From the NCBI RefSeq assembly GCF_024707525.1, contig NZ_CP062231.1:806001-870000 (forward strand): a stretch of 64,000 bases of DNA, in the 5' to 3' direction. The notes under the pieces are model-generated. The model saw nothing but the letters and a program-made list of their open reading frames with translations, had not been told where the DNA came from and ran no database searches. The stretch comes from Rhizobium sp. TH2. Its GTDB lineage: Bacteria > Pseudomonadota > Alphaproteobacteria > Rhizobiales > Rhizobiaceae. Positions within the stretch are counted from its first letter, which is position 1, and every line of letters starts with the position of its first letter. Below, piece by piece: positions 16,117 through 64,000 of this stretch. The translations under genes and the position numbers were made by a program.

Positions 16117-16520
16117 GGTCGGTCCTCGTCGGTTTCCAAGGACTGGGCATGGTGGACATGGAGGGAAGGTCGCTTGCACGCACGGAAATCCGGCGAGCAT
16201 GGCGATCCGCCTCTTGACCGCCCACCGCGATCAGTCGAGTTCAAAATCCCGAGGCTGGTTTCCGGGCTCTGGAACTGTCCTCACGGACTTTGTGACTCCT
16301 TCCCAGGCCATTCGGCCCAGTGGACTCCCGTCACAATTTACGTTCCAATACCGTTGCGGGGGCAGCGCCGGAATTTAACCGGCTTCCCAATTCTCCAACC
16401 GGTTTGACCCGATCGGCACCTCAAGTGTCCTGATAAGACCATAGTCGTTGCGACATGGCGTCATCATTTGCGACATCGCGATGGCGTCGTGAAAACATAA
16501 TCATTTTGCTCTGGAAAAGC
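16117..16520. promoter_or_regulatory. Control region of gbcAB with paired direct repeats
   Basis: This 404-base gap between gbcA and the lrp-type gene has no convincing gene. It contains TTGCGACAT at 16448-16456 and again at 16468-16476, exactly two helical turns apart, and ATGGCGTC at 16455-16462 and 16481-16488. Such spaced direct repeats suit an AraC-type activator of betaine catabolism. The regulator itself is not in the window. Confidence 0.4.
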
Positions 16521-22288: not shown

Positions 22289-23307
22289 CCAACATCATTG
22301 GCTCTGAACCGCTGGCATCGCTCGGCTGGTCCGATTTTTTCGCCGCCCAAATCGAGGAGGGCGAGGCGGATTTTGCACCGCGCCGCATTTCATCGGTCCA
22401 TCGCGCCCGCCTTGAAGCGGTCGATGTCTCGGGGCCGGTCCACCTCGATCTTCCTCCCAACGCCAATACGGCGGAATTCGCTGTCGGCGACTGGGTTCTC
22501 GCCGATCCGTGGTCCGGCGCGTTCATCCGTCGTCTCGAGCGCCGGACCTTGCTGCAACGGCGCACCGAAGGCCGGAACGGCCAGCAACTGGCGGCCGCCA
22601 ATGTCGATACGCTGTTCATCGTCACCTCGTGCAATGCCGATTTCAACCCAGGGCGGCTCGAACGCTACCTGATCATGGCGAACGAGGCAGGCACCACGCC
22701 GGTGATCGTGCTGACCAAAGCCGACACATCAGACGACGCCCGTGGCTATGAGCAGGATGCGATGTCCCTGCAGCGAAATCTGCCGGTCGTTGTCCTGAAC
22801 GCAAAGTCCCCCGATGCCGTCGATATACTTGCCCCCTGGTGCGGCCCTGGGCAGACCGTGGCGCTGGTCGGCTCATCCGGTGTCGGCAAGTCGACCCTGG
22901 TGAACACGCTCGCCGGGACCGGGCGCGACGGCATCCAGAAAACCGGGGATATCCGCGCGCATGACGCAAAAGGCCGCCACACCACCACGGCGCGGTCGCT
23001 GCATGCGCTTCCCGGCGGCGGCTGGATCATCGACACGCCGGGGATACGGACGCTCTATGTGAGCGACGTGACCGACGGCATCGACACGCTCTATGCAGAA
23101 ATCACCGATCTCGCGCCGCTTTGCCGGTTTCGCGATTGCACCCACGAACATGAACCGGGCTGCGCCGTTCAGGCTGCCGTGGCCGCTGGCACCCTGTCCG
23201 CCGAACGCCTGCAACGCTGGCGCACCCTGCGCGACGAAAATCGCGACAAGACGCCGGTGCTGACCGGACCAAAAGGCAACAAGGTTATCCGTAAGAACAG
23301 ACGCTGA
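22285..23307 (+). CDS. rsgA: Ribosome small-subunit-dependent GTPase A
   Basis: A 340-residue circularly permuted GTPase: the G4 motif (VLTKAD) comes first near residue 144, then G1 (GSSGVGKST) near 195, a TTT switch in GRHTTTARSL, and G3 (DTPGIR). An N-terminal OB-fold precedes it, and a zinc site CRFRDCTHEHEPGC lies near residue 280. RsgA matures the 30S subunit and checks its decoding centre. The start is GTG at 22285; no in-frame ATG lies nearby upstream. A leader peptide overlaps this start. Confidence 0.93.
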   Translation: MTNIIGSEPLASLGWSDFFAAQIEEGEADFAPRRISSVHRARLEAVDVSGPVHLDLPPNANTAEFAVGDWVLADPWSGAFIRRLERRTLLQRRTEGRNGQQLAAANVDTLFIVTSCNADFNPGRLERYLIMANEAGTTPVIVLTKADTSDDARGYEQDAMSLQRNLPVVVLNAKSPDAVDILAPWCGPGQTVALVGSSGVGKSTLVNTLAGTGRDGIQKTGDIRAHDAKGRHTTTARSLHALPGGGWIIDTPGIRTLYVSDVTDGIDTLYAEITDLAPLCRFRDCTHEHEPGCAVQAAVAAGTLSAERLQRWRTLRDENRDKTPVLTGPKGNKVIRKNRR

Positions 23308-39344: not shown

Positions 39345-39821
39345 TCAAGCAGCCCGTTGTCCCTCGATCTGCTGGGGGTCAACCGAAGTTATGGACGGAG
39401 CCACGGTCTGGATCGCAATCTTTCGCGGTTTCATTTGGTCAGGAATCTCCCGGACCAGATCCACAGACAGCAGGCCGTTGACCAGGCTCGCTCCCGTCAC
39501 CCTGACGTGGTCGGCTAGCTCGAACTTGTGCTCGAACGGCCGGCCGGCAATGCCGCGATGGAGATAGCCGTCAGCCTTGTCCCCTTCCTTGCGGCCGGTG
39601 ACGATCAGCAGGTTCGACTTGAATGTAAGGTCAAGATCCTTTTCACCGAAGCCCGCGACCGCCAGCGTAATGCGGTAGGTGTCGTCTCCAATTTTCAGAA
39701 TGTCATAAGGCGGCCAATCACTGATCGGACGGACGCGCTGGGCGTTTTCCAGCAAATTGAAAACCCGGTCGAAACCGACGCTGGACCGGAACAGGGGGCT
39801 GTAATCGTAAGATGTTGCCAT
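39345..39821 (-). CDS. Small heat shock protein Hsp20 (IbpA-like)
   Basis: A 158-residue protein. Two ATGs lie close together; 39821 has GGAGG eight bases upstream, while 39827 is only two bases from it. The start MATSYDYSPLFRSSVGFDRV is typical of rhizobial class A sHsps, the alpha-crystallin domain runs from about residue 40 (YRITLAVAGFGEKDLDL, LIVTGRK) to 135, with GLLSVDLVREIP near its end. sHsps hold unfolding proteins for refolding by DnaK and ClpB. Translation is likely controlled by the ROSE-like leader, transcription by RpoH. Confidence 0.92.
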   Translation of the reverse strand: MATSYDYSPLFRSSVGFDRVFNLLENAQRVRPISDWPPYDILKIGDDTYRITLAVAGFGEKDLDLTFKSNLLIVTGRKEGDKADGYLHRGIAGRPFEHKFELADHVRVTGASLVNGLLSVDLVREIPDQMKPRKIAIQTVAPSITSVDPQQIEGQRAA

Positions 39822-39905
39822 AGCCATATCCTCCTTGAAGCAACATGGGTATCAAGGCCATCGAGCCTTGTGAAGCCGGCCCTCTCGGCGCCGGCAGCGA
39901 TCGAT
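39822..39905 (-). ncRNA. ROSE-like RNA thermometer in the hsp20 leader
   Basis: The leader can form three hairpins: GCCGGC/GCCGGC (39875-39895), AAGGC/GCCTT (39854-39869), and a last one (39828-39843) where TTGCTTC faces GGAGGAT with an unpaired G. The UYGCU element opposite the Shine-Dalgarno with a bulged G is the hallmark of ROSE elements, which melt on heating and free the ribosome site of rhizobial sHsp genes. Confidence 0.68.
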
Positions 39906-48270: not shown

Positions 48271-48474
48271 ATGGCCGGGCATGTAGAGAGTAACCGGCCT
48301 ATGCGGCCGCGCCCGATCGATCAAATGAAGGGCGCGGCTACGCTCCCATCGTCCAACTCGAAAGCCTTCATAGCGGCCCAGAAAGCGATGATGAAATCGA
48401 TCGAGGCGTCCGTTATCAAGCTCAAGGCGGAACGAGAGCGCTTCTTTCGAGACAGGCGTAACAGCGAGGATTGA
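48271..48474 (+). CDS. Small basic hypothetical protein
   Basis: A 67-residue protein with GGAGG eight bases before ATG 48271. It has a Pro/Arg-rich start and a helix SKAFIAAQKAMMKSIEASV then IKLKAERERFFRDRR. A truncated relative is at 32239-32346. Highly basic and helical, so nucleic-acid binding is possible. It begins a run of three closely spaced genes. Confidence 0.6.
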   Translation: MAGHVESNRPMRPRPIDQMKGAATLPSSNSKAFIAAQKAMMKSIEASVIKLKAERERFFRDRRNSED

Positions 48475-50680: not shown

Positions 50681-50886
50681 TATTGACTGGAGTCATCCGA
50701 CGGCGGGAAGGATGCTCTAGCTGTGGTCAAAAAAGGCGGGGGACGATCCACAGCTGTGCACCTAGAATGGATCGGCTTGGGAAAGGTTCCGTAGCGACCA
50801 CCAATTTACGGCGACGCTGCTAACGTACGTCCGCGTGGCACGCGTTGCGAGTTTGGAGTGCACGGCAAAACAGGTCTCGTCGACTG

Positions 50887-52023
50887 TCAATTCGTCAGTC
50901 TCACGAGCGTCTTCGCGGCCGTGGCACCAATCAGCTTGAATGCCGCAACGAGTTCCTTGGTATTGTCGGCAGAGAAATAGTGCGCGGACGAAGTAGCGCA
51001 GTATTTAAGTAGGGCCTCGCCGGCCGCAGGCGCCATAAACGCGATTGAATATACCGTCATTTTCTGCGTTTTCGCCTTGTCGCAATATTTCTTCGTCTTA
51101 GCGTCCGCGCCGTTTACGTTGTTCTCACCATCGGTCATCAGGACAATGTACTTGTCCGGCTTCTTGGTGCCATTCTTGTCTTTGTGCGCTTTGTCTTCGT
51201 CGGAGTCTTTCAGGCTTTCGTACGCCTCCTCCATGGCTTCACCAGAGTTCGTGGTGCCGGTTGCCGTCAAAGCGTTTACATATTGCAGGATTGCGGAGGT
51301 GCCCCAATTAAGGTCGGACGGCGTTTGCATAGCATTGTTGTAGGAGACGCCGCCTGTGCGGACATATTTGAGATCCGGATCAACGTCTACGAATTGGGTA
51401 AGGAGGTCGGAAGTCGCCAGCTTCAGCGCTTCGATTTTTTTGTAAACCTTGGTGCAAATATACGGCTTGTTGCTCGCGTTCATGCACGTCGTCGTATAGG
51501 CGGTGGTCGTAGGGTAATCCATCGAACCGGATCGGTCCAGCACCAGATACATGGAAAACGCAGTCTTCGTCACGATGTCCGCGCCGCCCAGCACGCTCGC
51601 CTGCACAGACACGGGGACGGTGTCTACACCCAGGATTTTGAGGAAACTCGTTGGTACGGTTGCCTGCGCCGTGGCGGTGATGTCCTGGCCCCCGAAGTCT
51701 ATAACGATACTGTTGGTATCAAGTTTGTACTTGCTGCCTGACTGGGCTTCAGCCGCCAACCAGTTTTCCATATGAGCTCGAATGGACTTTTCGTCTTTGT
51801 TCTTGGCTTCTATCTGTTTGATTGCTGCCACGAGCGCGGCGTCCAGACTGCTCTGCATCTCACGATGGGTATTCAGTGCCATGGTGTAGTCGAACGCGAC
51901 CCCCATGCCGCCCAGCAAGGGGACACTGATTATGGCGAACGCCATTGCAAGGTTTCCACCCCGGTCTTGCGTGAATCTTCCGAAAGCGTTGGAGCATTTC
52001 TGCCGCAGTGACCAAAATCGCAT
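50887..52023 (-). CDS. TadG-like pilus protein with von Willebrand A domain
   Basis: A 378-residue protein. Residues 20-60 (DRGGNLAMAFAIISVPLLGG and VAFDYTMALN) form the single TadE/TadG-type transmembrane segment. From about residue 155 there is a vWA domain with the metal site DRSGSMD, then TGTTNSGEAMEEAY and LMTDGENN. These proteins sit at the inner membrane facing the periplasm and belong to Tad/Flp pilus or related surface systems. No other tad gene is in the window, so it is an orphan copy. Confidence 0.85.
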   Translation of the reverse strand: MRFWSLRQKCSNAFGRFTQDRGGNLAMAFAIISVPLLGGMGVAFDYTMALNTHREMQSSLDAALVAAIKQIEAKNKDEKSIRAHMENWLAAEAQSGSKYKLDTNSIVIDFGGQDITATAQATVPTSFLKILGVDTVPVSVQASVLGGADIVTKTAFSMYLVLDRSGSMDYPTTTAYTTTCMNASNKPYICTKVYKKIEALKLATSDLLTQFVDVDPDLKYVRTGGVSYNNAMQTPSDLNWGTSAILQYVNALTATGTTNSGEAMEEAYESLKDSDEDKAHKDKNGTKKPDKYIVLMTDGENNVNGADAKTKKYCDKAKTQKMTVYSIAFMAPAAGEALLKYCATSSAHYFSADNTKELVAAFKLIGATAAKTLVRLTN

Positions 52024-52426
52024 GCCACTCTCCTATCAAACCTCCGATCAATTGTATGGCTCAGTTGCTAATCGACATTTAAATTCCGCAACTGCTTTTC
52101 CAGGCACCATCGGTGAGGGTTAACGGACTATATCCAGCATTAGAACAATAGAATTTTAACCGCCAAACAGTATTAGAGAGGGGCGCTGATCCCGTAAAAT
52201 CTGCGTTCTAAAAGAAGCGGCCGCACGCTTGATCCCGAGCGGCCGCTTCCTTTTGCTCGCACTGCGAGGTCCGACTCCGTTTCAGCCTACCTAGAACGAA
52301 ATTGATCGTTCAACCAATCAGGAACCGGGGTATTTTGAAATGGACGCTATTCAAATGGAACATACCTTAAGCGAGCCGCGTTCCCAGCCACCTCGATTAG
52401 TACGACGTTTGACGAGCGGGTGATCC
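52024..52426. other. Intergenic region with one strong hairpin
   Basis: About 400 bases between the TadG-like gene and the response-regulator remnant. Apart from the terminator at 52214-52254 I see no gene. It presumably holds the tadG promoter. Confidence 0.5.
52214..52254 (+). terminator. Strong hairpin terminator
   Basis: GAAGCGGCCGC and GCGGCCGCTTC form a perfect 11-base stem around a 14-base loop, followed by CTTTTG. No gene ends close upstream on this strand, so it may end an unrecognised short transcript or be a leftover of a lost gene. Confidence 0.65.
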
Positions 52427-52808
52427 ATGAACGAAGCAGCTTTGCCCAAGGATACTCGTTGTAGAAGACGATGCATTATTGTTGTTGGAAGCTGAGACAA
52501 TCTTACAGGATGGGGTTCTCACGGCTAATGACGGTCCGTCGGCGTTTGTTGAGATTGAGAACGGCGAGATAAGCGCGCTGGTCACAGACATCAATTTGGG
52601 AAGCGGTCCAAGTGGCTGGGATGTCGCACGCCGCGCTCGCGAAGCCCGTCCGGATCTGCCGGTCGTTTACGTTAGCGGCCAGCACAGTGCAGAATGGACC
52701 GTGCACGGCGTCCCGAACAGCATTATGATTTCAAAACCGTATGTCCCTGCGCTACTGGTAACGGCGATTGCAACGCTACTCAACGCTGCAGTGCCAGCAG
52801 CGAACTAA
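52427..52808 (+). pseudogene. Response regulator receiver domain with N-terminal frameshift
   Basis: From ATG 52427 the frame reads MNEAALP and then fails; with one base removed in the CCCAAGG run near 52447 it continues ILVVEDDALLLLEAETILQD, followed by LVTDINLGSGPSGWDVARRA and ISKPYVPALL. All receiver hallmarks are present: acidic pair EDD, phospho-acceptor Asp in TDINLG and the SKP lysine. Without the correction the only start would be TTG codons after the EDD pair. A pseudogene or a sequencing error. Confidence 0.65.
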
Positions 52809-52916
52809 CTCACACCAATCACAATCGGTGCATTCAATTTCTGGATAGTGTCTCAGCTCAGTTCCGCAAGCTTGACGCGAAAATCATTACAAATTCAGAG
52901 CGTTGGCGCTGAATTC

Positions 52917-52941
52917 GGAACTTTCTTGATTGGTCTCCGTT
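52917..52941 (+). promoter_or_regulatory. Candidate EcfG promoter before DUF1236 gene
   Basis: GGAAC at 52917-52921, exactly 16 bases, then CGTT at 52938-52941: a full match to the consensus, 37 bases before ATG 52979. Confidence 0.65.
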
Positions 52942-52978
52942 TGGGCGCCACACCACGCCACCCAACTGGAGAACCACA

Positions 52979-53266
52979 ATGAAAAACGTTCTTATTGCTT
53001 TCACCGGCCTGTCGCTGGCTCTGTCGGCCCCCTACGCCATGGCGCAGGACACGGTGGTCATTCCCGACACGGTGACCACCTACGTCACACAGCAGCAGGT
53101 CGAAGACACGACCATTGACGGTGATATCGTCGTCGGCTCATCGCTGCCGGACAAGGTGGTGATCAAGAATGTTCCAGACCACGACGATTATGGCTTTGCC
53201 TTCGTCAACAAGAAACGCGTCATCGTCGAACCGAAGACCCGCAAGGTCGTGAAAATCGTCGATTGA
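52979..53266 (+). CDS. DUF1236 family exported protein
   Basis: A 95-residue protein. Residues 1-22 are a signal peptide ending YAMAQ. The mature part contains VTTYVTQQQVEDTTIDGDIV, GSSLPDKVVIKNVPD and FVNKKRVIVEPKTRKVVKIV, which is the DUF1236 signature (V-x-[IL]-x-x-V-P-D followed by Y-x-[FY]-x-x-V-N-x-x-x-V-[IL]-V-[ED]-P). Family members are small periplasmic proteins, common in rhizobia and often stress-induced; this agrees with the promoter found upstream. Confidence 0.88.
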   Translation: MKNVLIAFTGLSLALSAPYAMAQDTVVIPDTVTTYVTQQQVEDTTIDGDIVVGSSLPDKVVIKNVPDHDDYGFAFVNKKRVIVEPKTRKVVKIVD

Positions 53267-53340
53267 CGCAATGCCGTGGAAGGGGCGCTGGCGTCGGCTG
53301 GAGCCGACGCCAGATTAAAGCAAGGCTCCTGGAGCCACCA

Positions 53341-53562
53341 ATGTGGAAATTTGCAATATTCTCAACCGCACTGATTTTGATCATATCTTTAAAAGTGGCG
53401 GCCGAGGCGCCGGTGGCCGAACCACAGGCCACAATCGTTGAGCGGCAGTGCCTTACTGCGATCAAGAAAGCACCCAAGGATTGGTTGGATCGTCTGCGAG
53501 CCGGACGATGCGGAGCATGGCGCAATCGCTCGGCAGACTCCAAGTCTGCACAGACCCTTTAG
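53341..53562 (+). CDS. Small exported hypothetical protein
   Basis: A 73-residue protein from ATG 53341 with GGAG upstream. A signal peptide (MWKFAIFSTALILIISLKVA) precedes a short mature part with two Cys and a basic helix. No family recognised. It may be transcribed with the DUF1236 gene 74 bases upstream. Confidence 0.4.
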   Translation: MWKFAIFSTALILIISLKVAAEAPVAEPQATIVERQCLTAIKKAPKDWLDRLRAGRCGAWRNRSADSKSAQTL

Positions 53563-53680
53563 GCCGTCCGACATCGGCGTCTGCAAGACACTCGCCGGCC
53601 AATCGTGTGCGGCGCGGACGCGTTCGAAAAAAACAGCCAGCCGGCATGTGCACGACCGGGCTGCTGCATCCCGCAGTTAT

Positions 53681-53887
53681 TCATAGCGCCAAAGATGCGA
53701 AGCTGCGAAAGCGGTTCATCCTGTGGCGGCGCGCCAGCTCGACAACTGCATCTGTCAACTCTTGTTCTGTCCATCCGGCTTTCGTTGCGTCCTCCGCAAG
53801 TGCTTCCAGAACGTGATCAAGGTCGACGTAGGGTGCGTGGAGATCAATGACTTGCCGAAGGAAGTCGGATTCGATGCGAGCTCGCAT
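53681..53887 (-). CDS. Small helical hypothetical protein
   Basis: A 68-residue protein from ATG 53887 (AGGGAAGGA directly upstream); an ATG at 53953 or a TTG at 53989 would lengthen it. It reads DLDHVLEALAEDATKAGWTE then QELTDAVVELARRHRMN, with the A-G-W-T-x-x-E-x-x-x-A-x-x-x-L-A pattern of the other tiny helical proteins in this island. Function unknown. Confidence 0.5.
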   Translation of the reverse strand: MRARIESDFLRQVIDLHAPYVDLDHVLEALAEDATKAGWTEQELTDAVVELARRHRMNRFRSFASLAL

Positions 53888-54370
53888 TCCTTCCCTCGCT
53901 GTGGGTATTGTCCAGGACGACTTGGCGAGTTGATAGAGAGCACGGCCTTTCATTTCCCCAAATCGTGCCACAAATCCCGTCGAGGTCAATATATTCCAAG
54001 TTGTGCCCGGTGCGCGAACTTCATCCCTTGACTATCGGCTCCCTGGTCATAGACGGAATTGCGGATCAAACAGTCGAACAAGGATTCACTAAAAGCAGGA
54101 TTGCTGCCACTGGTAGTTCCGTGGCTATGGCCACTTGCGACCAACGGAACATGTTTGCGACATACTACCACAGCTACTCAGAAAATTGACTCTGTACATT
54201 GATCGCCACGGCAAATCGGGTCATACCAATATTGACCAGCTGGCATATTACCCCGCCGTTTAACGGCTGTCGGCTTGGTCACTTTCGTTCAGATTCAGAA
54301 AGATGGAACCCCCTTAATTTTCAGGGGTTGTTGTGCGTTAAATCGCATTGCGGAGGCTCACGTGCCTATT

Positions 54371-54625
54371 ATGGTCGATCTCCATTCACCGATCTTCGAT
54401 GCCTCAAATCCTCAACGAACTGCACAATGCCGGCGAGAAACGGAAGCGGTAGCACGGCGGATTGTTTTAGATATGGTTGCTGCCGGCTGGCGCGAAAGCG
54501 AAGCCGCTCTTGCACTCGCTGATGCGTTCGATGACTATTGCATCTATCTGGCAAAGCGTCCGGTGACCACACTCGTCGCCGCGAACTCAAATCAATTTGC
54601 CGTCCGACAGCCAAGGCTTCGATGA
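54371..54625 (+). CDS. Small helical hypothetical protein
   Basis: An 84-residue protein from ATG 54371: VDLHSPIFDASNPQRTAQCR, then RIVLDMVAAGWRESEAALAL and ADAFDDYCIYLAKR. I recall rhizobial proteins with the same L-H-S-P-x-F-D-A-x-N-P-x-R start and the G-W-x-x-x-E-A-x-x-x-[IL]-A-D-A-x-D-D-x core; they have no known role. It is the longest member of the island's tiny helical set. Confidence 0.58.
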   Translation: MVDLHSPIFDASNPQRTAQCRRETEAVARRIVLDMVAAGWRESEAALALADAFDDYCIYLAKRPVTTLVAANSNQFAVRQPRLR

Positions 54626-54661
54626 CGAGACGACAGGTATGAAATACAGGGCCGAGACTCG

Positions 54662-54874
54662 ATGATGACCGTCAAGCTCGGAAGCGCCGAAGTGCGGATT
54701 GATGTTTTCCAAACGAGCAACTCACTTTGGATGGCTGTCGGAAATTACATGGACGTTGAGGTAAGAACGACAGGACCCTCAGCAGCGGCCGCAAGGGCAC
54801 GATGGCTCCAGGCGGCACAGTACCAAAGCAAATTCAGATCCGAACAGGGACTGGAAACTATTGGCGAGACCTGA
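54662..54874 (+). CDS. Hypothetical protein overlapping the repressor gene
   Basis: A 70-residue protein (ATG 54662 or 54665): VKLGSAEVRIDVFQTSNSLW then a Thr/Ala-rich helix AAAARARWLQAAQYQSKF. Its end overlaps the start of the HTH gene by 14 bases, so translation is coupled. No family recognised. Confidence 0.5.
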   Translation: MMTVKLGSAEVRIDVFQTSNSLWMAVGNYMDVEVRTTGPSAAAARARWLQAAQYQSKFRSEQGLETIGET

Positions 54875-55531
54875 ACTTGAGCCGAAAACCGAACTCGGCG
54901 CGCGGCTGCGCGCGATCCGACGGCATTTCAACGATCCGGATCGGGAGGTGTGGGCACGAAAGCTCGGTGTTGGGAAACAAACGCTGGCTTCGTATGAGCG
55001 GGGGAAAACTGAGCCTACAGCGTCAATCTTGCTTGCTTACCAGCGGGCGTTTGGCATCCGCCCTGACTGGTTACTGACCGGCGCTGGAAGCATGTTCGTC
55101 GATCCGTATAAGGGGGCCCGCACCACCAACTGCAGTTGATCCCTGGGCAATGGAGCGGCTCTATATCGCCGTCGAACGGGTTTATCGTGCCGATCACAGG
55201 CAACGCAGTCGCCAGCGAAGCTGCCTCACTGTTCAATGTCTTGCTAACGCGAGTCGGCGACATACGCGATCGGCCGATCGTCGAGGAAGTCTTGCCCGTG
55301 TTGGCAAATGAACTAAAGCGGAGGTTGATTGCTGCCGGGCCAGGTTCCAGCAAAGCCTCGACCTCAGGATCGTCAATTGATGTCAATCGTGTATTCCGGA
55401 TCGACCGTCAGCGGTCGCGCAGTCTCCACCCCAGACGGGATATAGACTTCGTCGGCGTCGAGGCCTGCGCGGCGTGCGCGATGGATCTGTGCATATGTTC
55501 CTCGTTAGGTCTGCGCATGTACGCTCTTTGA
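54861..55531 (+). pseudogene. Phage-type HTH repressor broken by two frameshifts
   Basis: TTG 54861 starts an XRE HTH: ELGARLRAIRRHFNDPDREV, WARKLGVGKQTLASYERGKT and AFGIRPDWLLTGAGS. At a G5 run near 55112 the frame is lost; the coherent continuation is in another frame, PAPPTAVDPWAMERLYIAVE, and then a third, ASEAASLFNVLLTRVGDIRD to VLPVLANELKRRL. The pieces join into a cI-like repressor without a peptidase domain. As it stands only the 92-residue HTH part would be made. Confidence 0.65.
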
Positions 55532-55704
55532 ACTCGCATTCGCGCAACCTTGCTAATGTCTATGGGGCAGGCAGTGTTGACCGGCGCCAGAGAAAGGGTC
55601 TGTGCGGTGCCACCTGTTTTTCCTTTGGGTCGAGCATTGCTCAACTTTGTCGCACCGCAGCAAAAATGGTTGACGGTGCTGCGCTGCGATTTTATTGTAT
55701 GATT

Positions 55705-55818
55705 ATTGGCCGCTTATCTCCTCCCAAGCGCGCAATGCGACCAGCCGGCGCTCCTCCTCCCAGTCGGCGGTCCATCATCAAGGGCTCGGCGCACCTCCTC
55801 CCGCACCGAGCCCTTTTT
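55705..55818 (+). ncRNA. Anti-Shine-Dalgarno small RNA (cuckoo/alpha-r14-like)
   Basis: Three successive hairpins each expose CTCCTCCC in the loop: CGCTT/AAGCG with ATCTCCTCCC (55711-55730), a GACC-GCCG/CGGC-GGTC hairpin with CTCCTCCTCCC (about 55738-55772), and the terminator stem AAGGGCTCGG/CCGAGCCCTT with CACCTCCTCCC (55780-55815) followed by TTTTTT. A promoter fits: TTGACG at 55670-55675, 17 bases, TATTGT at 55693-55698. Rhizobial RNAs of this kind pair with ribosome-binding sites and lower translation of many mRNAs. Confidence 0.78.
55780..55818 (+). terminator. Terminator of the small RNA
   Basis: A perfect ten-base stem, AAGGGCTCGG with CCGAGCCCTT, a 16-base loop holding CTCCTCCC, and a run of T directly after the stem. 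The hairpin serves both as terminator and as third target-binding loop. Confidence 0.85.
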
Positions 55819-55885
55819 TATTTTCAAGATGGAACTGGTTTTGAGGGCTGTGTGTTGATCGCGCGCACAGAAAACGGAGACATCC

Positions 55886-56047
55886 ATGCAGCGTAATGAA
55901 AGCCCTCAGCCGCGAGAAGTAATCGAGGTGCCGGCCGCGTGCTATCGAAAGCGCGCAGGTAAGCCGCGTATGCTTTCGTATGTGCGGGTGCAGAATGTGG
56001 GCAAGGATGGCAGGCGCCGCACCGTATTTACATTTCTCTGGAAATGA
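55886..56047 (+). CDS. 53-residue basic phage-type protein
   Basis: ATG 55886 has GGAG eight bases upstream. The product has SPQPREVIEVPAACYRKRAG then LSYVRVQNVGKDGRRRTVFT: a small beta-rich, basic protein. Its TGA overlaps the next ATG (ATGA). No family recognised; it begins the first rightward pair of the phage region. Confidence 0.5.
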   Translation: MQRNESPQPREVIEVPAACYRKRAGKPRMLSYVRVQNVGKDGRRRTVFTFLWK

Positions 56048-56352
56048 CCATGGCGGAAGTGGACTGGCATAGTGCCGGGGAGTTCGTAGGGCGTGACCTC
56101 GCGGAGCAAGGCGGCACGGCGATACTGGATAACGTCGGGTCGATTGGTCTGATCCAGGCAATCCTATGGCTAGACGGTGTACTCGATGGCTTGCATGAGC
56201 GCGGCATTGACGCCAAGAGCATCGCTATATCGCGTACCGCTTATGAGGATTTCATCGAAGCGTCGGGATCGATTGATGAGACGTATCGGGGGATTATTCT
56301 TTTGGACGCCGATGACGGCGGCGCGCGCCCGTCGGTCGTGGTGGCGGCGTGA
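56044..56352 (+). CDS. Hypothetical phage-type protein
   Basis: A 102-residue protein translationally coupled to the previous gene by ATGA (a second ATG lies at 56050). It reads VDWHSAGEFVGRDLAEQGGT, then IGLIQAILWLDGVLDGLHER and YRGIILLDADDGGARPSVVV. Alpha/beta and acidic; no family recognised. Confidence 0.5.
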   Translation: MTMAEVDWHSAGEFVGRDLAEQGGTAILDNVGSIGLIQAILWLDGVLDGLHERGIDAKSIAISRTAYEDFIEASGSIDETYRGIILLDADDGGARPSVVVAA

Positions 56353-56420
56353 TGGGCCGGCGTGGCGCTTACGGCCGCCAGAACTCGGTACGCCCGACGC
56401 CTCTTGCATTCCTCCATTTC

Positions 56421-56660
56421 TCAATAGAGCCCCGGCTTGCCGAACATTCCCATGATGCGCCCGATGCCAGAGAATGGCGAATTACCAGGTGCCTTCGGAT
56501 ACGGATTATTCTTCTGAGCGCGGTAAGCCAGGGCATCACCCATCATGGCCATGCCGCTTCCTACGTCCCGTGGTGGGCGCATGAGGGCGCGGGCGATCCG
56601 TTGGCGTGAGGTCTCGGGGCTATTGCGCCGTGGGTCGTTTCCGTCGAATATGAAGGCCAT
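56421..56660 (-). CDS. Small phage structural-type protein
   Basis: A 79-residue protein: AFIFDGNDPRRNSPETSRQR, then VGSGMAMMGDALAYRAQKNN and a Gly/Pro-rich tail with IGRIMGMFGKPGLY. The G-M-A-M-M-G-D-A-L-A-Y-R-A stretch resembles the N-terminal G-I-A-S-I-G-D-A-I-L-Y-R-A of the 668-residue virion-type protein at 59011, so it may be a related short component. Confidence 0.55.
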   Translation of the reverse strand: MAFIFDGNDPRRNSPETSRQRIARALMRPPRDVGSGMAMMGDALAYRAQKNNPYPKAPGNSPFSGIGRIMGMFGKPGLY

Positions 56661-56690
56661 GTTTTTGTCCTATGCCACGAGGGCCGGGAA

Positions 56691-56939
56691 TTGCAGATTG
56701 ATCACGACCCGAATGAGCCGACGCATCGCTCTCTGAAGGTTATCGTCGAATTGGCAGGCGCCGTAACGATCGGCCTCCTGCTCGTGCTGAGATACGGGCT
56801 TGAGCAAGTAGTGGGGTTCATTCCGTTTCCTGCGCAAACCGCCATTGGCGGCCTTGTGTTCGGTGTTTTCATTGGCATGCGGCTCGGTTGGTGGGACTCG
56901 GAGCGATATCATTCCCGAACTCCAGGTAAAGACGGATAG
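56691..56939 (+). CDS. Small membrane protein in the phage region
   Basis: An 82-residue protein with TTG start and GAGGG nine bases upstream. Two hydrophobic helices (VIVELAGAVTIGLLLVLRYG and AIGGLVFGVFIGMRLGWW) follow a polar N-terminus. Size and topology would suit a holin, but position alone does not prove it. It is divergent from the 56421 gene and its end overlaps the 701-residue gene by 31 bases. Confidence 0.5.
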   Translation: MQIDHDPNEPTHRSLKVIVELAGAVTIGLLLVLRYGLEQVVGFIPFPAQTAIGGLVFGVFIGMRLGWWDSERYHSRTPGKDG

Positions 56940-59014
56940 GCCGAACGGCCTCCGGTCTGGAGAAGGGCCGCAATCAACTTCTGGATCTTCGGATCGTTAA
57001 CCGACTGAAGCCGCAGGCCTCGGTTCATGAGCGCCTGAACGATTGCATCACGGCTATCGCCCTTTGCCACGCTGAGGCTTCCTATCTGCTCTGCGAAGCG
57101 AGAGGCGGCACTGTCCGCGTTTTCCCTCAGCAGCGAGTCAGCGATGCTCTTGCCGCCCTTGAGGGCCAATCCAGTGAGAGTCGTATCGCCGGGGAGTGTC
57201 TTCGGCTTTGCTGTTTCGTCAAGGAAGTCCCCGAAGCGGTTTGCCATAGCGGTGTCTGAGCCGCGCGCGACGCGGTTAGCAGTGTCGGCAAATGCGGCTT
57301 CCCGATCGATCGCCGCCAGCGCCCGTTCGGCGTTTTCATCCCCGAACATCATGCCGAGTTTGGCGCGGTTCCAATCGCCTTCACCCTGCACAATCCGCTT
57401 TAGTGCGCCGAGGTCGTTAGCCTTGGTGCCAACTGCGCGCTCGATCTCCGCGCGCGTGCTCTGCTTGATGCGCGTGGGAACACCGGATGGCCCGATCATC
57501 TCGCCTGCGGGCAATGCCCCTTCCGTGAGCATGCCATCGACTTCCTCTGGCCGAAGTGCGCTTGCCTCATTGTTCAGAACTGGCCGACCTTGAGTAAGGC
57601 CTTCCTTTTGACGGGCCAACTCTTGGAATTGCGCATCCACTTCCTTGATCTGTGGGACCGCCTCGCTCAGAAGACCGTCAATCTCTTGCCGAGCCTGGGT
57701 AAGCTGTTGGACTACTTTGGGGTTCGTTTCACTGGTGATGAGCCCGTCAATCGCCTGCCTGCTTTCGAAGAGCGCACGCGGGTTCGGGTCAAGAACTTGC
57801 TCCCCCGGAATGTTGAGATAGCCGCGCACTCGGCGAAGTGCTTCCTGCGCGGGGCCGCGAAGATTGACAACCGCCGAATCCAGACTGTTTGCAAGGTCGG
57901 TGGTATCCACGGCCCGCGCGTTTTCGAACAGCGGGGCGTACAACTGACCAACTGCCCTTTGGCTCTCCTCAATGCCTTCATTGACTTGCGAGGGAATAAC
58001 GGCATCGCCGAGGTTCTGCCGGACATCCTCGCCAAGTCGCGTGTTAGCGGCCTTTGAACGGTCCATGAGAGCGTTGACGATATCATCGCGGGTGCCGGGA
58101 CGGGTGGAGGCTCCGCGAGCAACGCCGAGCCAATCGGGCGACACATCCGCCAGCATCGCCTCAGGACCGAGCTTGTCCAGTTCGGCTTTCTGCATCGCGA
58201 CCTTGGCGGGGTCGGCAAGCTCCTTCTCGACATACTTCGCCGCGTCACGATTGATGCCAGACAGGGCGTCTGCAACCTTCTGGCGCGTGAAATACTCTTT
58301 GCCAAGCTTTATGCCTTTGCTCGCTAAAGCGGAAATGGGTACTACGGCACCGCCAAGAATCCCGCCGATTACCATCTCTTCAGCGGATTGCTTCGCCCGA
58401 TTTTCAGCATTTCCTTCGCCAGCACCAAATCCTTGCACAGCCCCCGCACCAGCCCCGGCAGCTGTTGACGCAATAACCTTTCCAGCGGTCGTTCGACCCA
58501 TATTGCCTAGAACGTACTGACCAGCGACAGGTGCCGCCTTCAAGAGACCGAGCCCAGACAGCACGCCGCCGCCGATTTTCAGTCCTGTCGAGGTCGCAGG
58601 ATTTTCCTCGTCAAATGTCTTGTCCTTGCCGCGCTGGATTTCCAAGGCCTTGTCATACCGATCGCCCCAGGTCTCTTGAGGCAGCTTCTGGTAGCTGTCT
58701 GGCAACAGTGGATCCACGACAGGCGCAAGGGTTGCGTTCGTCGCCGCGTCCGCTTCATCCAGATAGGAGCCGACTCCAAGAACACCACGTCCCATCGTGC
58801 GCACCATTTCCTCGGCGCGACCCGGTATCGCCTTCAGATCATCAACAAGCGAGTTATCACGCGTTGCCTGGCTGACTTTAGCGGCCTCGGCCCTCATGAG
58901 AGTTTCGAAGTCGTCGGCAGGCGCCTCAGCGTCCACTGTCTCGCCGGTTTCAGACTGCATTCGTTTGCGCCTGGCTTGCGCAATGGCAATGGCCTTCATC
59001 TGCTCTGGCGTCAT
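56909..59014 (-). CDS. Large phage virion/ejection-type protein
   Basis: A 701-residue protein starting MTPEQMKAIAIAQARRKRMQ. Residues 150-245 are Gly/Ala-rich with hydrophobic stretches (GGGVLSGLGLLKAAPVAGQY, GKVIASTAAGAGAGAVQGFG, IGGILGGAVVPISALASKG). The remainder is helical and Gln/Ala/Glu-rich (VVQQLTQARQEIDGLLSEAV). Long, helical, partly membrane-seeking proteins with this start occur as internal or DNA-ejection proteins of podovirus-like phages. Its ATG overlaps the stop of the 668-residue gene (ATGA). Confidence 0.65.
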   Translation of the reverse strand: MTPEQMKAIAIAQARRKRMQSETGETVDAEAPADDFETLMRAEAAKVSQATRDNSLVDDLKAIPGRAEEMVRTMGRGVLGVGSYLDEADAATNATLAPVVDPLLPDSYQKLPQETWGDRYDKALEIQRGKDKTFDEENPATSTGLKIGGGVLSGLGLLKAAPVAGQYVLGNMGRTTAGKVIASTAAGAGAGAVQGFGAGEGNAENRAKQSAEEMVIGGILGGAVVPISALASKGIKLGKEYFTRQKVADALSGINRDAAKYVEKELADPAKVAMQKAELDKLGPEAMLADVSPDWLGVARGASTRPGTRDDIVNALMDRSKAANTRLGEDVRQNLGDAVIPSQVNEGIEESQRAVGQLYAPLFENARAVDTTDLANSLDSAVVNLRGPAQEALRRVRGYLNIPGEQVLDPNPRALFESRQAIDGLITSETNPKVVQQLTQARQEIDGLLSEAVPQIKEVDAQFQELARQKEGLTQGRPVLNNEASALRPEEVDGMLTEGALPAGEMIGPSGVPTRIKQSTRAEIERAVGTKANDLGALKRIVQGEGDWNRAKLGMMFGDENAERALAAIDREAAFADTANRVARGSDTAMANRFGDFLDETAKPKTLPGDTTLTGLALKGGKSIADSLLRENADSAASRFAEQIGSLSVAKGDSRDAIVQALMNRGLRLQSVNDPKIQKLIAALLQTGGRSAYPSLPGVRE

Positions 59015-61017
59015 TGGAAAAGCTTCCTTTGCTCAGGCGTCATGAATTTCCAGTCCTCAGGATCCACGCCGTCCGGAACAGAGTTCGCTAAAGGCATCAC
59101 AGTGGCATTGGTACCATCCATCGGCATTTGCCCTGTCGCGGGGTCAGCCTGCGAGGCGTCAGCCTGCCAAGGGGCGTAGGGATTGAATGTCGGGATAACG
59201 TCGGCTTCGTTGAACTTGTTGCGCGCCGCAATGCCCTTGAATTGCGTGCTGTCGTTCTGGAACTGACCATCATAAGCCTTCACGCGGCTGTAAGCCTCTT
59301 GCATCAGCGCTTTGCGGGTTTCAGGCGTCAACGTAGCGCCGCCGTTGATGCTGGCAACAACACCCTGGAACCAGTCAGGCAGGGAAGCGGTGTTGCGAAC
59401 CATGACCTGTTCGCCTTCCCTCACAACGGAGGTCGGGTCGAATATCTTGCCCATGCCATAGACGAGATTGAGGTCAGACGCCTTGGAATTGCGGCCCGCC
59501 GTTTCTGCCATGCTCTGATAGATCGGGAGCGCCTGGGACAGGTTCTTGTAGCTGGGGAGGTCTTGGATTTCCTTGCGGAGTGAAGTCACATCCTTGAAAT
59601 CGCTGGTCGGGGCACCATCGAGCTTTTTGATTTCGTTGGTACGCTTGTTGTAAATCGTCGTGTCGTTCAGCTTCTCCCAGTCGGCGTCAGGTGTCGAAAA
59701 ATCGGCGATGACTTCCTTCGTGTCAGCGTCGATAACCCTGTCATTCACGGTCACGGAGTTGCGCTTCTTGGGCTCCTGCACCGTCTTGGTGCTGCCATCT
59801 GGCATAACTTCGTAGACGCCGGTCGTGTCGAAGCCTTGTTCCTTCTCTTCCTGCTCGGTCATGCGGCGCGCTTTGGGCGGATTCTTGATCTTGTCGATTT
59901 CGAGCCGGCCCTTTTCGAGATCCATCTGGTACTTCGGGTCGGCTTGCTGCCTTTGCGTTTCGCGGGCGGCATCCTCTTCTTCGAACCTACGCTTGATCAG
60001 CGCCTGGATGATGGCTTTCTTGCCGGGCGAGAGGAACGGATTCGAAAGCGCCTCGGTCGCCTTCATGATGTCGGGCGACATGCCTTGCGAGAGAGCGGCA
60101 GCAACCATCTTGCGAGGTGCTGGGGGAAAGTAATCGGAGTTCTGGGCCACTTCCACAGGCTGCTGCATCTGCTGCTGGGCCATCGGGTCGGGCTGCTGGA
60201 AACCATCAGGCACAGGCACGACCGGCACCTGATCCTGTTGCGGCATCATGGCGCTCGCAGGCACCTTGGCGTCAAGGCTCGCGACCTGGTTGGCGTTGAT
60301 GCCGTCCCAGCGGTTCACGCCAGCCTTCTTCGCACCGTACCAGGCGCGCCAACCGTCCTTCTTCGCGTGATCGAGCGCGAAATCAATCATGGCGTTGGCG
60401 TTCTTCGGGTCGCGGGGATCTAGGCCAGTTCGTTCCTGGAAGTCGTTGCCGAGACCCTTCGGGAAGGTTTTCCCGTCGCCGACAAGCATCTGGAAGTCGC
60501 CATAGGACGGTTCGTATTGGTCGCCCTTTTTCACGCGGGACTGCCAGACGCCTGGAGCCAAGCCCTCGGAACGGGCAACCCTGACCGCAATATCAGGATC
60601 GACACCGCGCTTTTGCGCTGCTTGGCGGATATAGGATTCCCGCGCGGCCAGGTCGCGAGTGAGCGGCTGCTGAGGCGATGCGTCTACAGCATCCTGTGGC
60701 GACTTTATTGTCGGCACGACGGCCGGCGCCGCATCCGTGACGCTAAGGTTCGTATCGGGTTGGTCGCGTGGACCAAACAGGCTGCTGATGGCGTCATCGC
60801 CCACGGTGTCCGCTGCCTCGATACCGGACTTTTCCGCCTTGTCGGCTTTGTTCATCGTGGCCCGGTACAAAATGGCGTCGCCGATCGATGCAATGCCCTC
60901 GCCAACAGTCTGCGGGGTGCGGCGCCGGCCGCCAAGCGCTTCCGCTACGGCGCGAAGCCTTGCCAGTTCCTGAGGTGTCTTGGGGAGACCTTCCCCACCG
61001 AAAATGTATCCAACCAC
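59011..61017 (-). CDS. Phage virion protein with lytic-transglycosylase-like domain
   Basis: A 668-residue protein. Residues about 122-245 form a lysozyme-like domain: ESYIRQAAQKRGVDPDIAVR, a likely catalytic Glu in VARSEGL, SYGDFQMLVGDG, and NANAMIDFALDHAKKDGWRA with WYGAKKAG. Then come a Gln/Pro-rich linker and a long helical part with a strand-rich insert (VTVNDRVIDADTKEVIADFS). Such proteins enter the cell wall during DNA injection. It ends TPEQRKLFQ, and the next gene begins with a very similar TPEQMKAI motif, an internal echo at the junction. Confidence 0.72.
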   Translation of the reverse strand: MVGYIFGGEGLPKTPQELARLRAVAEALGGRRRTPQTVGEGIASIGDAILYRATMNKADKAEKSGIEAADTVGDDAISSLFGPRDQPDTNLSVTDAAPAVVPTIKSPQDAVDASPQQPLTRDLAARESYIRQAAQKRGVDPDIAVRVARSEGLAPGVWQSRVKKGDQYEPSYGDFQMLVGDGKTFPKGLGNDFQERTGLDPRDPKNANAMIDFALDHAKKDGWRAWYGAKKAGVNRWDGINANQVASLDAKVPASAMMPQQDQVPVVPVPDGFQQPDPMAQQQMQQPVEVAQNSDYFPPAPRKMVAAALSQGMSPDIMKATEALSNPFLSPGKKAIIQALIKRRFEEEDAARETQRQQADPKYQMDLEKGRLEIDKIKNPPKARRMTEQEEKEQGFDTTGVYEVMPDGSTKTVQEPKKRNSVTVNDRVIDADTKEVIADFSTPDADWEKLNDTTIYNKRTNEIKKLDGAPTSDFKDVTSLRKEIQDLPSYKNLSQALPIYQSMAETAGRNSKASDLNLVYGMGKIFDPTSVVREGEQVMVRNTASLPDWFQGVVASINGGATLTPETRKALMQEAYSRVKAYDGQFQNDSTQFKGIAARNKFNEADVIPTFNPYAPWQADASQADPATGQMPMDGTNATVMPLANSVPDGVDPEDWKFMTPEQRKLFQ

Positions 61018-63216: not shown

Positions 63217-63485
63217 TGGAGCGCCCACCTGTCGAGATGAAGATGGCAGGTGGTGAAGTCGGACTCGATCGCGCCGCCAAAGTCATAGATCGGCAGTTCG
63301 TAACGGTGCTTGAGCCGGATGGCTTCGATGAGTGCGTCCACGTAGCTCGGGCCTTGATAGGTCATGTCCAGGAGATTGCGCCCGCAGTGGAATACCCAGA
63401 ATTCCATGCTGCCGTCATCCTCGGGCCAGGCATAGATATCGATCCGGTCTAGGGGCAGCGTGTTCAGATGGCTTGCGAAGTCCAT
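63213..63485 (-). CDS. Hypothetical phage protein
   Basis: A 90-residue protein: HLNTLPLDRIDIYAWPEDDG, then FWVFHCGRNLLDMTYQGPSY and IEAIRLKHRYELPIYDFGGA. Strand-rich, acidic. Its start lies within the last codons of the RNase H gene, and its stop overlaps the HTH gene start, so four genes are translated in a chain. No family recognised. Confidence 0.55.
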   Translation of the reverse strand: MDFASHLNTLPLDRIDIYAWPEDDGSMEFWVFHCGRNLLDMTYQGPSYVDALIEAIRLKHRYELPIYDFGGAIESDFTTCHLHLDRWALQ

Positions 63486-64000
63486 GACTGGCCTCCCATG
63501 ATTGCGGCGTACTCTCTGTCCAGCGCCGCGCTAGGATTTTCATCGCGGCTGTCGAGCGAGGCACGGCCGATCGATGCCAGTTCGTCGGCGCGGATGTTGC
63601 CGAGGATGCCCGAATGACCCTTGCACCACGCGATGGAGATTAACGGATTTTCCGTTAACGCCGCATCGATTGCCTGCCATAGATCAAGGTTCGCAACTGC
63701 CTGATTTGCTGGCTTAGCATTGGCGCCCTTGCGCTTCCATCCCTTCGACCGCCACGAATGGCGCCAGATGTTGCAGCCTTCCACGACATACTTGCTATCG
63801 CTGATGATGGTCGCCGACTCACCGGCCGCGTTCTCGGCGATCCATTCCACTGCACGGAGCAGTGCCGTCAGTTCGGCAACGTTGTTCGTGGCGATGTCTA
63901 TGCCGCCGAAGTCGTGGGCGATTTCCAGGCCATCCCGATAGGCCACGAAAGCCCATCCGCCTACGCCTGGATTTGGCACGCACGCGCCATCGGTAAATAC
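63464..64000 (-). CDS. rnhA: Ribonuclease HI (5' end outside window)
   Basis: About 178 residues are visible, reading to the right edge. Active-site residues are all present: Asp in VFTDGAC, Glu in NNVAELTALLRAVE, Asp in IISDSKYVVEG and Asp in NIRADELAS, with His in CKGHSG. It cleaves the RNA strand of RNA-DNA hybrids. A C-terminal extension of about 25 residues follows the domain. It is linked by overlaps to phage genes downstream, so it is probably a phage copy rather than the housekeeping rnhA. Confidence 0.9.
   Translation of the reverse strand, partial: VFTDGACVPNPGVGGWAFVAYRDGLEIAHDFGGIDIATNNVAELTALLRAVEWIAENAAGESATIISDSKYVVEGCNIWRHSWRSKGWKRKGANAKPANQAVANLDLWQAIDAALTENPLISIAWCKGHSGILGNIRADELASIGRASLDSRDENPSAALDREYAAIMGGQSWTSQAI

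What the first reader, a model, noticed from the sequence alone, without database searches (positions are those of the whole stretch)
55670..55818. Three-hairpin anti-Shine-Dalgarno RNA with its own promoter beside phage genes
Seen in sequence: three consecutive hairpins, each with CTCCTCCC in its loop, the last also a perfect terminator; a TTGACG-N17-TATTGT promoter sits just upstream. Known: cuckoo/alpha-r14 RNAs of rhizobia carry this motif and repress translation. Inference: placed between a decayed repressor and phage genes, it may shut host translation or silence phage genes. Targets with strong GGAGG sites nearby include hsp20, DUF982 and the genes at 48271 and 50036.
Basis: partly seen in the sequence, partly recalled or inferred. 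Interest (0 to 1): 0.72.

Follow-up and report, generated by a model that had tools for sequence, protein, structure and literature searches.

The report
Phage-carried copy of ar14 small RNA
The spot holds a clear copy of a known family of bacterial small RNAs that can block the start of protein synthesis, lying in a decayed phage-like island, and some phages elsewhere carry the same kind of RNA as a neat optional cassette, which suggests that phages make use of it.

Summary
Window 55701-55818 (+) is a full-length member of Rfam RF02344 (ar14; alpha-r14, NfeR1, "cuckoo"): 82.1 bits, cut-off 58.8. It has three hairpins with CTCCTCCC loops, the third a terminator. The promoter is plausible but at chance level. 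It is one of six copies here. Two copies are syntenic in four congeners compared; this one is not. It lies between a phage-repressor-type gene and phage genes, with an integrase about 13 kb on. A shut-off of host translation is not supported.

The phage lead gave more. Of 111 viral stretches with a triple motif, 48 match an ar14 model built from bacterial copies. Of the 49 matches, 41 are one type: part of a ~0.5 kb cassette beside a helicase gene related to that of Rhizobium phage 16-3. It is present in 37 of 75 testable viral helicase loci and cleanly missing from close relatives. Its stems covary while the loops stay fixed. My ten literature searches listed no report of this. Whether the window copy belonged to the phage or is a passenger is undecided; 0 of 20 related phage neighbourhoods carry one. 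Transcription was not tested.

The parts
55670..55698 (+). Possible sigma-70-type promoter TTGACG-N17-TATTGT
   Evidence: 9 of 12 consensus positions; 0.9 expected in shuffles, so plausible by position only
55701..55818 (+). ar14-family small RNA (RF02344)
   Evidence: 82.1 bits, cut-off 58.8; z -4.51
55709..55733 (+). Hairpin 1, loop motif CTCCTCCC at 55718-55725
55735..55775 (+). Hairpin 2, loop motif CTCCTCCTCCC at 55751-55761
55780..55819 (+). Hairpin 3 and T run: intrinsic terminator, loop motif CTCCTCCC at 55795-55802
54861..55139 (+). HTH gene of phage-repressor type; begins 13 bases after the end of a block shared with contig C4
   Evidence: phrog_4 E 6e-12; HTH_3 E 9.9e-11; block ends at 54848
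56044..56352 (+). Small ORF (102 aa) of unknown function between the RNA and the phage genes
   Evidence: no match in 296 other family genomes; two other proteins in the protein database (79% and 47%)
56909..59014 (-). Phage-family gene, 701 aa
   Evidence: phrog_5880 E 6.3e-83 (function unknown); relatives in 18 of 296 other family genomes
59011..61017 (-). Phage-family gene, 668 aa
   Evidence: phrog_13634 E 7.4e-28, weaker matches to endolysin and tape-measure families
63464..63979 (-). RNase H gene of the island (start lies beyond this reading; longer ORF to 64093)
   Evidence: phrog_531 E 3.8e-39; PF00075 E 3.1e-25

Best explanation
The locus encodes an ar14-family trans-acting small RNA. 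Like the characterised member NfeR1, it would expose three C-rich loops that pair with purine-rich Shine-Dalgarno regions of selected mRNAs and block ribosome entry. It is one of six copies in this genome, has no syntenic counterpart in the congeners compared, and sits in a decayed phage-derived island, so it was probably brought in or moved by mobile DNA. Shown here: family membership, structure, copy number, lack of synteny, phage-type genes on both sides, and that other ar14 RNAs are carried by phages as an optional cassette with conserved loops and covarying stems. Inferred: transcription, Shine-Dalgarno pairing by this copy, and arrival with the phage.
For: RF02344 at 82.1 bits; fold z -4.51; six copies; synteny kept by two other copies but not by this one; repressor-type gene before it and phage genes after it; integrase about 13 kb on; block shared with C4 ends 13 bases before the repressor-type gene. 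Mechanism from literature: anti-SD loops of NfeR1 repress ntrB (passages of PMC10746234); hairpin loops with CCUCCUCCC (PMC3927594 section 2.7). Phage carriage elsewhere.
Against: No expression data; promoter match at chance level. In S. meliloti only one of six copies was reliably detected by northern blot in the conditions tested (passage of PMC7143759). 0 of 20 neighbourhoods of related phage genes hold an ar14, and the related viral contig L175 has none in the 17 kb held. No attachment repeats found. Loop 1 departs by one base from the 9-mer.
Confidence: 0.68

Rival explanations
1. Host passenger: an ordinary bacterial ar14 copy that happens to lie beside a phage integration site, with no functional relation to the phage.
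For: 0 of 20 neighbourhoods of related phage genes hold an ar14. In congener G003 foreign DNA joins another genome's layout inside a tRNA-Gly gene just upstream of a bacterial ar14, so phages do land beside host copies. ar14-like RNAs also occur on plasmids (100 records at E <= 0.01, none covering 80% of the query).
Against: A repressor-type gene lies on the side away from the phage structural genes and the C4 block ends before it, so phage-type genes bracket the RNA. No congener has this copy in a host context.
Confidence: 0.35
2. Relic: a decayed, untranscribed copy in a decayed island.
For: The island looks decayed (my reading); only one of six S. meliloti copies was reliably seen by northern blot (PMC7143759); promoter at chance level.
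Against: All three hairpins, loops and the terminator are intact, and the copy scores well over the family cut-off.
Confidence: 0.25
3. General shut-off: the RNA lowers host translation as a whole by masking Shine-Dalgarno sites or the ribosome, in favour of the phage.
For: Three loops complementary to consensus Shine-Dalgarno sequence; phage carriage in other lineages.
Against: Characterised members act on selected mRNAs (passages). Perfect 8-base sites before ATG are few: 26 in the genome, 10 for the reversed control. A phage gene after the cassette itself has a GAGGAG start site (L234), so a general block would hit the phage too.
Confidence: 0.06

Closest known systems
Rfam RF02344 ar14 / alpha-r14 family; NfeR1 of Sinorhizobium meliloti; cuckoo RNAs
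   Same: Three hairpins with anti-Shine-Dalgarno loops, terminator as third hairpin, several copies per genome (passages)
   Different: This copy lies in a phage-like island without synteny in congeners; expression and targets unknown. The phage cassette is a setting for which my searches listed no report
CcsR RNAs with the DUF1127 protein CcaF1 of Rhodobacter sphaeroides (CIN1 locus; passages of PMC10253847)
   Same: Hairpin RNAs described there as CcsR-like and linked with cuckoo RNAs
   Different: Co-transcribed with a DUF1127 gene; I noticed none beside the window copy (by eye)
Phage-borne small RNAs: c4 of P1/P7 (passage of PMC12197685); DicF and svsR of E. coli prophages (titles and abstract starts only)
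   Same: Small RNAs carried by phages; c4 acts around a ribosome binding site
   Different: They are not ar14 RNAs; the passages I saw describe no multi-hairpin anti-SD RNA

Membership tests
RF02344 ar14 | Covariance score over the curated cut-off, full length | tested here: met
   82.1 bits against 58.8, positions 1-123 of 123
RF02344 ar14 | Three hairpins, each with CCUCCUCCC unpaired | tested here: met
   Three hairpins with CUCCUCCC unpaired; full 9-mer in loops 2 and 3, loop 1 has U for the first C
RF02344 ar14 | Intrinsic terminator as third hairpin | tested here: met
   Stem 55780-55815 followed by six T
RF02344 ar14 | Several copies per genome | tested here: met
   Six copies over the cut-off
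RF02344 ar14 (NfeR1-type control) | Sigma-70 promoter with conserved upstream motif | tested here: inconclusive
   Core promoter match at chance level; one TGC-N11-GCA upstream, by my estimate about 5% likely by chance
RF02344 ar14 (function) | Transcribed; represses mRNAs through the loops | not testable with these tools
   Needs RNA-seq and reporter assays
Phage accessory cassette (moron) | Viral-contig type: present or absent as a unit between phage genes | tested here: met
   37 of 75 testable viral helicase loci have it; in 33 loci measured, 16 with the RNA have the next-gene anchor at +502 to +507, 9 without it at +2 to +7 (exceptions in the full report)
Phage accessory cassette (moron) | Viral-contig type: own promoter and terminator | tested here: inconclusive
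   Terminator hairpin and promoter-like hexamers by eye; no promoter scan or expression data
Phage accessory cassette (moron) | Window copy: part of the phage rather than of the host | tested here: inconclusive
   Bracketed by phage-type genes, but 0 of 20 related neighbourhoods carry it and no attachment repeats were found

The most novel reading that the evidence does not exclude
Temperate phages of Rhizobiales have taken up ar14 anti-Shine-Dalgarno RNAs as optional regulatory cassettes that retune host (and perhaps rival-phage) translation, expressed from their own promoter in the prophage or on induction. The window copy is a fossil or still active example from a second phage lineage.
Probability: 0.4. 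Interest if true: 0.75.

Novelty: new variant of a known kind. Interest (0 to 1): 0.5.

Why it matters
ar14/cuckoo RNAs act in nitrogen metabolism, stress response and symbiosis of rhizobia, and they are multi-copy and scattered in genomes. Carriage by phages offers a concrete vehicle for that scattering. It also makes testable whether phages use a host-type anti-Shine-Dalgarno RNA to adjust translation in their hosts: close phage relatives with and without the cassette are a natural experiment.

Tried and rejected
Phage records by blastn with the window RNA and two other copies: no ar14-like match, only short chance words or nothing. tblastn of the 701-aa gene in phage records: no match. The genome-contig scan with it: 65 pattern stretches, no relative. 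Viral scan with it: one relative (L175), without ar14 in the stretch held. Viral scan with the repressor-type protein: four distant relatives over 38 residues, none with ar14.

Attachment repeats between 52.0-57.5 kb and 61-75 kb: best match 24 bases at 91.7% (54542-54565 with 68320-68343, E 0.002), outside the left junction that C4 marks, so not convincing. Contig C4 as an empty site: it shares 50886-54848 but nothing of the right side, so it marks a left junction only.

ar14 beside relatives of the 701-aa gene: 0 of 20; I fetched 20 of the 21 other matches, leaving out G072. ar14 in six named phages related to 16-3: 0 of 6 whole records; four of them have a gap of 237-293 bases after the helicase with TTGACAAATTTGTA-type repeats instead.

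Viral hits L103 and L146 pass my model R1 (53.2 and 40.2 bits) but not Rfam's cut-off; I count them in the 48 but do not trust them. L130 passed my fold filter but neither R1 at E 1e-6 nor Rfam. The TGC-N11-GCA before the window copy is not used as evidence. I did not identify the window's genus: two plasmid searches gave only distant matches. No structure prediction was run.

Full report
WHAT IS THERE. The sequence shows the three hairpins as described. The Rfam search of the whole window gives RF02344 (ar14) at 55701-55818 on the + strand, full length, 82.1 bits against a cut-off of 58.8, E 2.9e-13. The strand folds into the three hairpins with each CUCCUCCC unpaired, at -47 kcal/mol against -31.84 (sd 3.36) for 200 shuffles. 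The third hairpin runs into six T. TTGACG-N17-TATTGT ends at 55698, about where the family model begins; but shuffles of the region hold 0.9 such matches on average, so the promoter is plausible, not shown.

COPIES. The family search finds six copies over the cut-off in this 6.44 Mb genome, four on C1 and two on C3. Over 61 genomes (own and 60 relatives) 45 have a match at E <= 0.001 and 37 one over the cut-off; 14 control genomes have none. I compared about 10 kb around each of the six own copies (RNA masked) with the 20 copies that one search counts in four congeners (completeness 98-99%; stretches) by tblastx at E <= 1e-15. C1:1995443 and C1:3254004 keep long matching flanks in all four congeners. 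C3:99690 has a match of about 1 kb in one congener and smaller ones in others. C1:1564003, C3:211693 and the window copy have none. A DNA search with 50800-57200 in the 9 genomes of the genus found, in the other eight, the RNA and scattered pieces, but no match that spans the RNA and its flanks; the closest RNA there is 83% over 94 bases.

THE ISLAND. Window 50886-54848 recurs at 84% on the 98-kb contig C4 and the likeness stops at 54848. Thirteen bases on begins an HTH gene that matches phage repressor families (phrog_4, E 6e-12). After the RNA come small ORFs and then, on the other strand, phage-family genes of 701 and 668 aa and an RNase H gene. An integrase gene (phrog_1, E 2.4e-45) lies at 68.5-69.8 kb in window numbering, outside the window, about 13 kb beyond the RNA. 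So phage-type genes bracket the RNA. I found no convincing attachment repeats, and ARAGORN finds no tRNA within 24 kb before the RNA or in the next 20-kb stretch (868001-888000). Against a phage origin: relatives of the 701-aa gene occur in 18 of 296 other family genomes; of their 21 matches I fetched 20 neighbourhoods (15-20 kb each), and none holds an ar14 at E <= 0.05. The RNA is not a fixed part of this phage type.

PHAGES ELSEWHERE. A pattern of three CTCCTCCC with gaps of 18-48 finds 111 stretches in the viral contigs; the reversed motif finds 35. A covariance model, R1, was built from 35 copies of this genome and relatives; it has 21 base pairs, in the second and third hairpins only. 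R1 matches 48 of the 111 stretches at E <= 1e-6, 49 matches in all. The 35 control stretches give one match even at E <= 0.01, at 26.4 bits. Rfam itself was run on 15 of the 111: 12 loci (13 matches) pass its cut-off; L103, L130 and L146 do not. Of the 49 R1 matches 41 are one sequence type, and 40 of these have the 3' end of a phage helicase gene on the opposite strand just downstream (in the exception, L058, only 435 bases are held there). In the two contigs whose neighbours I ran against PHROGs, L105 and L136, these match helicase phrog_16, Cas4-type exonuclease phrog_1990, processivity factor phrog_947, methyltransferase phrog_359, exonuclease phrog_10477 and primase phrog_3022: a replication module, not a host flank. 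Other settings: beside an endolysin gene and tail-fibre genes (L091), near an integrase and a helicase gene (L082), and near an end of the stretch held (L120, L085, L123).

A CLEAN CASSETTE. With an alignment of five such helicases I fetched 80 viral loci, the best of 107, and 21 loci from named genomes. R1 finds the RNA beside the helicase in 37 of the 80 viral loci; five of the 80 hold fewer than 300 bases past the gene, so 37 of 75 can be judged. Of the named loci 2 of 21 have it: Ochrobactrum sp. CM-21-5 and Brucella pseudogrignonensis CCUG 30717. In 33 loci chosen by me (helicase identity 87-100%) I measured the distance from the helicase stop to a conserved sequence before the next gene. 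Nineteen have the RNA: 16 with the anchor at +502 to +507, one (L253) at +818, two (L235, L247) with no anchor found. Fourteen lack it: nine with the anchor at +2 to +7, two (L218, L246) at +220, three (L219, L254, L255) with none found. So about 0.5 kb is present or absent as a unit. Some loci of the two collections look like the same phage (for example L214 and L248 read alike). The cassette also holds a second terminator-like hairpin upstream of the RNA (by eye). In 36 of 39 cassettes a TGC-N11-GC(A/G) dyad lies 56 bases before the model start, in 21 as TGC-N11-GCA. An NtrC site TGC-N11-GCA is reported farther upstream in the nfeR1 promoter (passage of PMC10746234); whether the phage dyad binds anything is unknown.

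SELECTION. I aligned 17 cassette RNAs (16 distinct). The loops 1 and 2 are invariant in their motif, loop 3 nearly so, while stems change in step: 31 pairs, 99.0% of cells paired (shuffled 94.5%, 0 of 500 as high), 8 pairs with changes on both sides (shuffled 5.0; 6 of 500), 32 such cells (11.6; 0 of 500), covariation score 0.280 (0.186; 0 of 500), but 22 further pair types, which 101 of 500 shuffles reach; slid partners pair in 25-46% of cells. The structure came from the same alignment and related sequences inflate such counts, so this is support, not proof. By tblastn the best-ranked named relatives of the helicase are Rhizobium and Sinorhizobium phages including 16-3, 44-56% identical; six whole records hold no ar14. 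Eight named genomes of Brucella, Ochrobactrum and Falsochrobactrum hold 5-7 ar14 matches each, so a phage copy comes on top of others.

HOW IT PROBABLY WORKS. From passages I read: alpha-r14 RNAs carry the anti-Shine-Dalgarno motif in three hairpins, and NfeR1 represses ntrB through three redundant motifs (PMC10746234; PMC3927594 section 2.7); of six S. meliloti loci one is reliably detected by northern blot (PMC7143759). I take the window RNA to work in the same way. In its own genome 26 places have GGGAGGAG 4-9 bases before ATG, against 10 for the pattern read backwards: perfect targets are few, though shorter pairing may suffice. A cell-wide shut-off is unlikely. Why a phage would carry such an RNA is open; tuning of the host in lysogeny or action against rival phages are guesses.

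WHAT IS NEW. The RNA is a new member of a known family. For its carriage by phages as a cassette, my ten searches listed no paper whose title or abstract start describes it; one search listed 20 of 619. The paper that defines the cuckoo family (PMC4615179) is not held, and most subscription journals are missing, so this is a weak negative.

LIMITS. IMG/VR contigs may be proviruses with host flanks: the replication-module cassettes lie among phage genes, the edge cases may be host DNA. The two viral sets overlap, and many contigs are near copies: 39 cassettes give 14 distinct RNA sequences. No expression data were at hand. After rechecking I corrected the anchor count from 14 to 16 of 19; confidence in the best explanation stands at 0.68.

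Noticed in passing
window 16236-16438 (-): Cobalamin riboswitch, 107.7 bits against a cut-off of 31.5.
   Followed up: no
window 39815-39895 (-): ROSE RNA thermometer over the cut-off (54.0 bits) just before the hsp20-type gene at 39827.
   Followed up: no
window 50886-54848 and L174 2795-6753 (contig C4): A 4-kb block is repeated between chromosome and the 98-kb contig C4 at 84% identity; its end marks the left junction of the phage-like island.
   Followed up: partly
L357 4800-5130 (G003:C2) against L361 4750-4823: In one congener foreign DNA with phage-like ORFs (my reading) joins inside a tRNA-Gly gene just upstream of a bacterial ar14; the other congener has the intact tRNA there.
   Followed up: partly
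L014 (G000:C1:3254004), just upstream of the RNA: One more CTCCTCCTCCC copy flanked by GATCGGC...GCCATCGGGATC lies before the family match, so this copy may have four hairpins.
   Followed up: no
L085, L120: Viral contigs with ar14 near the end of the stretch held; L120 has a phage RNA polymerase gene (phrog_414), and a DUF1127-like ORF (label recalled) lies beside the RNA. L085 has two ar14 in tandem.
   Followed up: no
window 22431-22554 (+): Weak match to model R1, 17.9 bits, E 0.0022; not over Rfam's cut-off.
   Followed up: no
L376, L378, L379, L380: gap after the helicase gene: Phages related to 16-3 carry paired TTGACAAATTTGTA-type repeats in the gap where other phages carry the ar14 cassette.
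   Followed up: no
window 55603-55659 (+): Inverted repeat TGCGGTGC (55603) / GCACCGCA (55652), just upstream of the promoter-like site; possibly an operator, untested.
   Followed up: no
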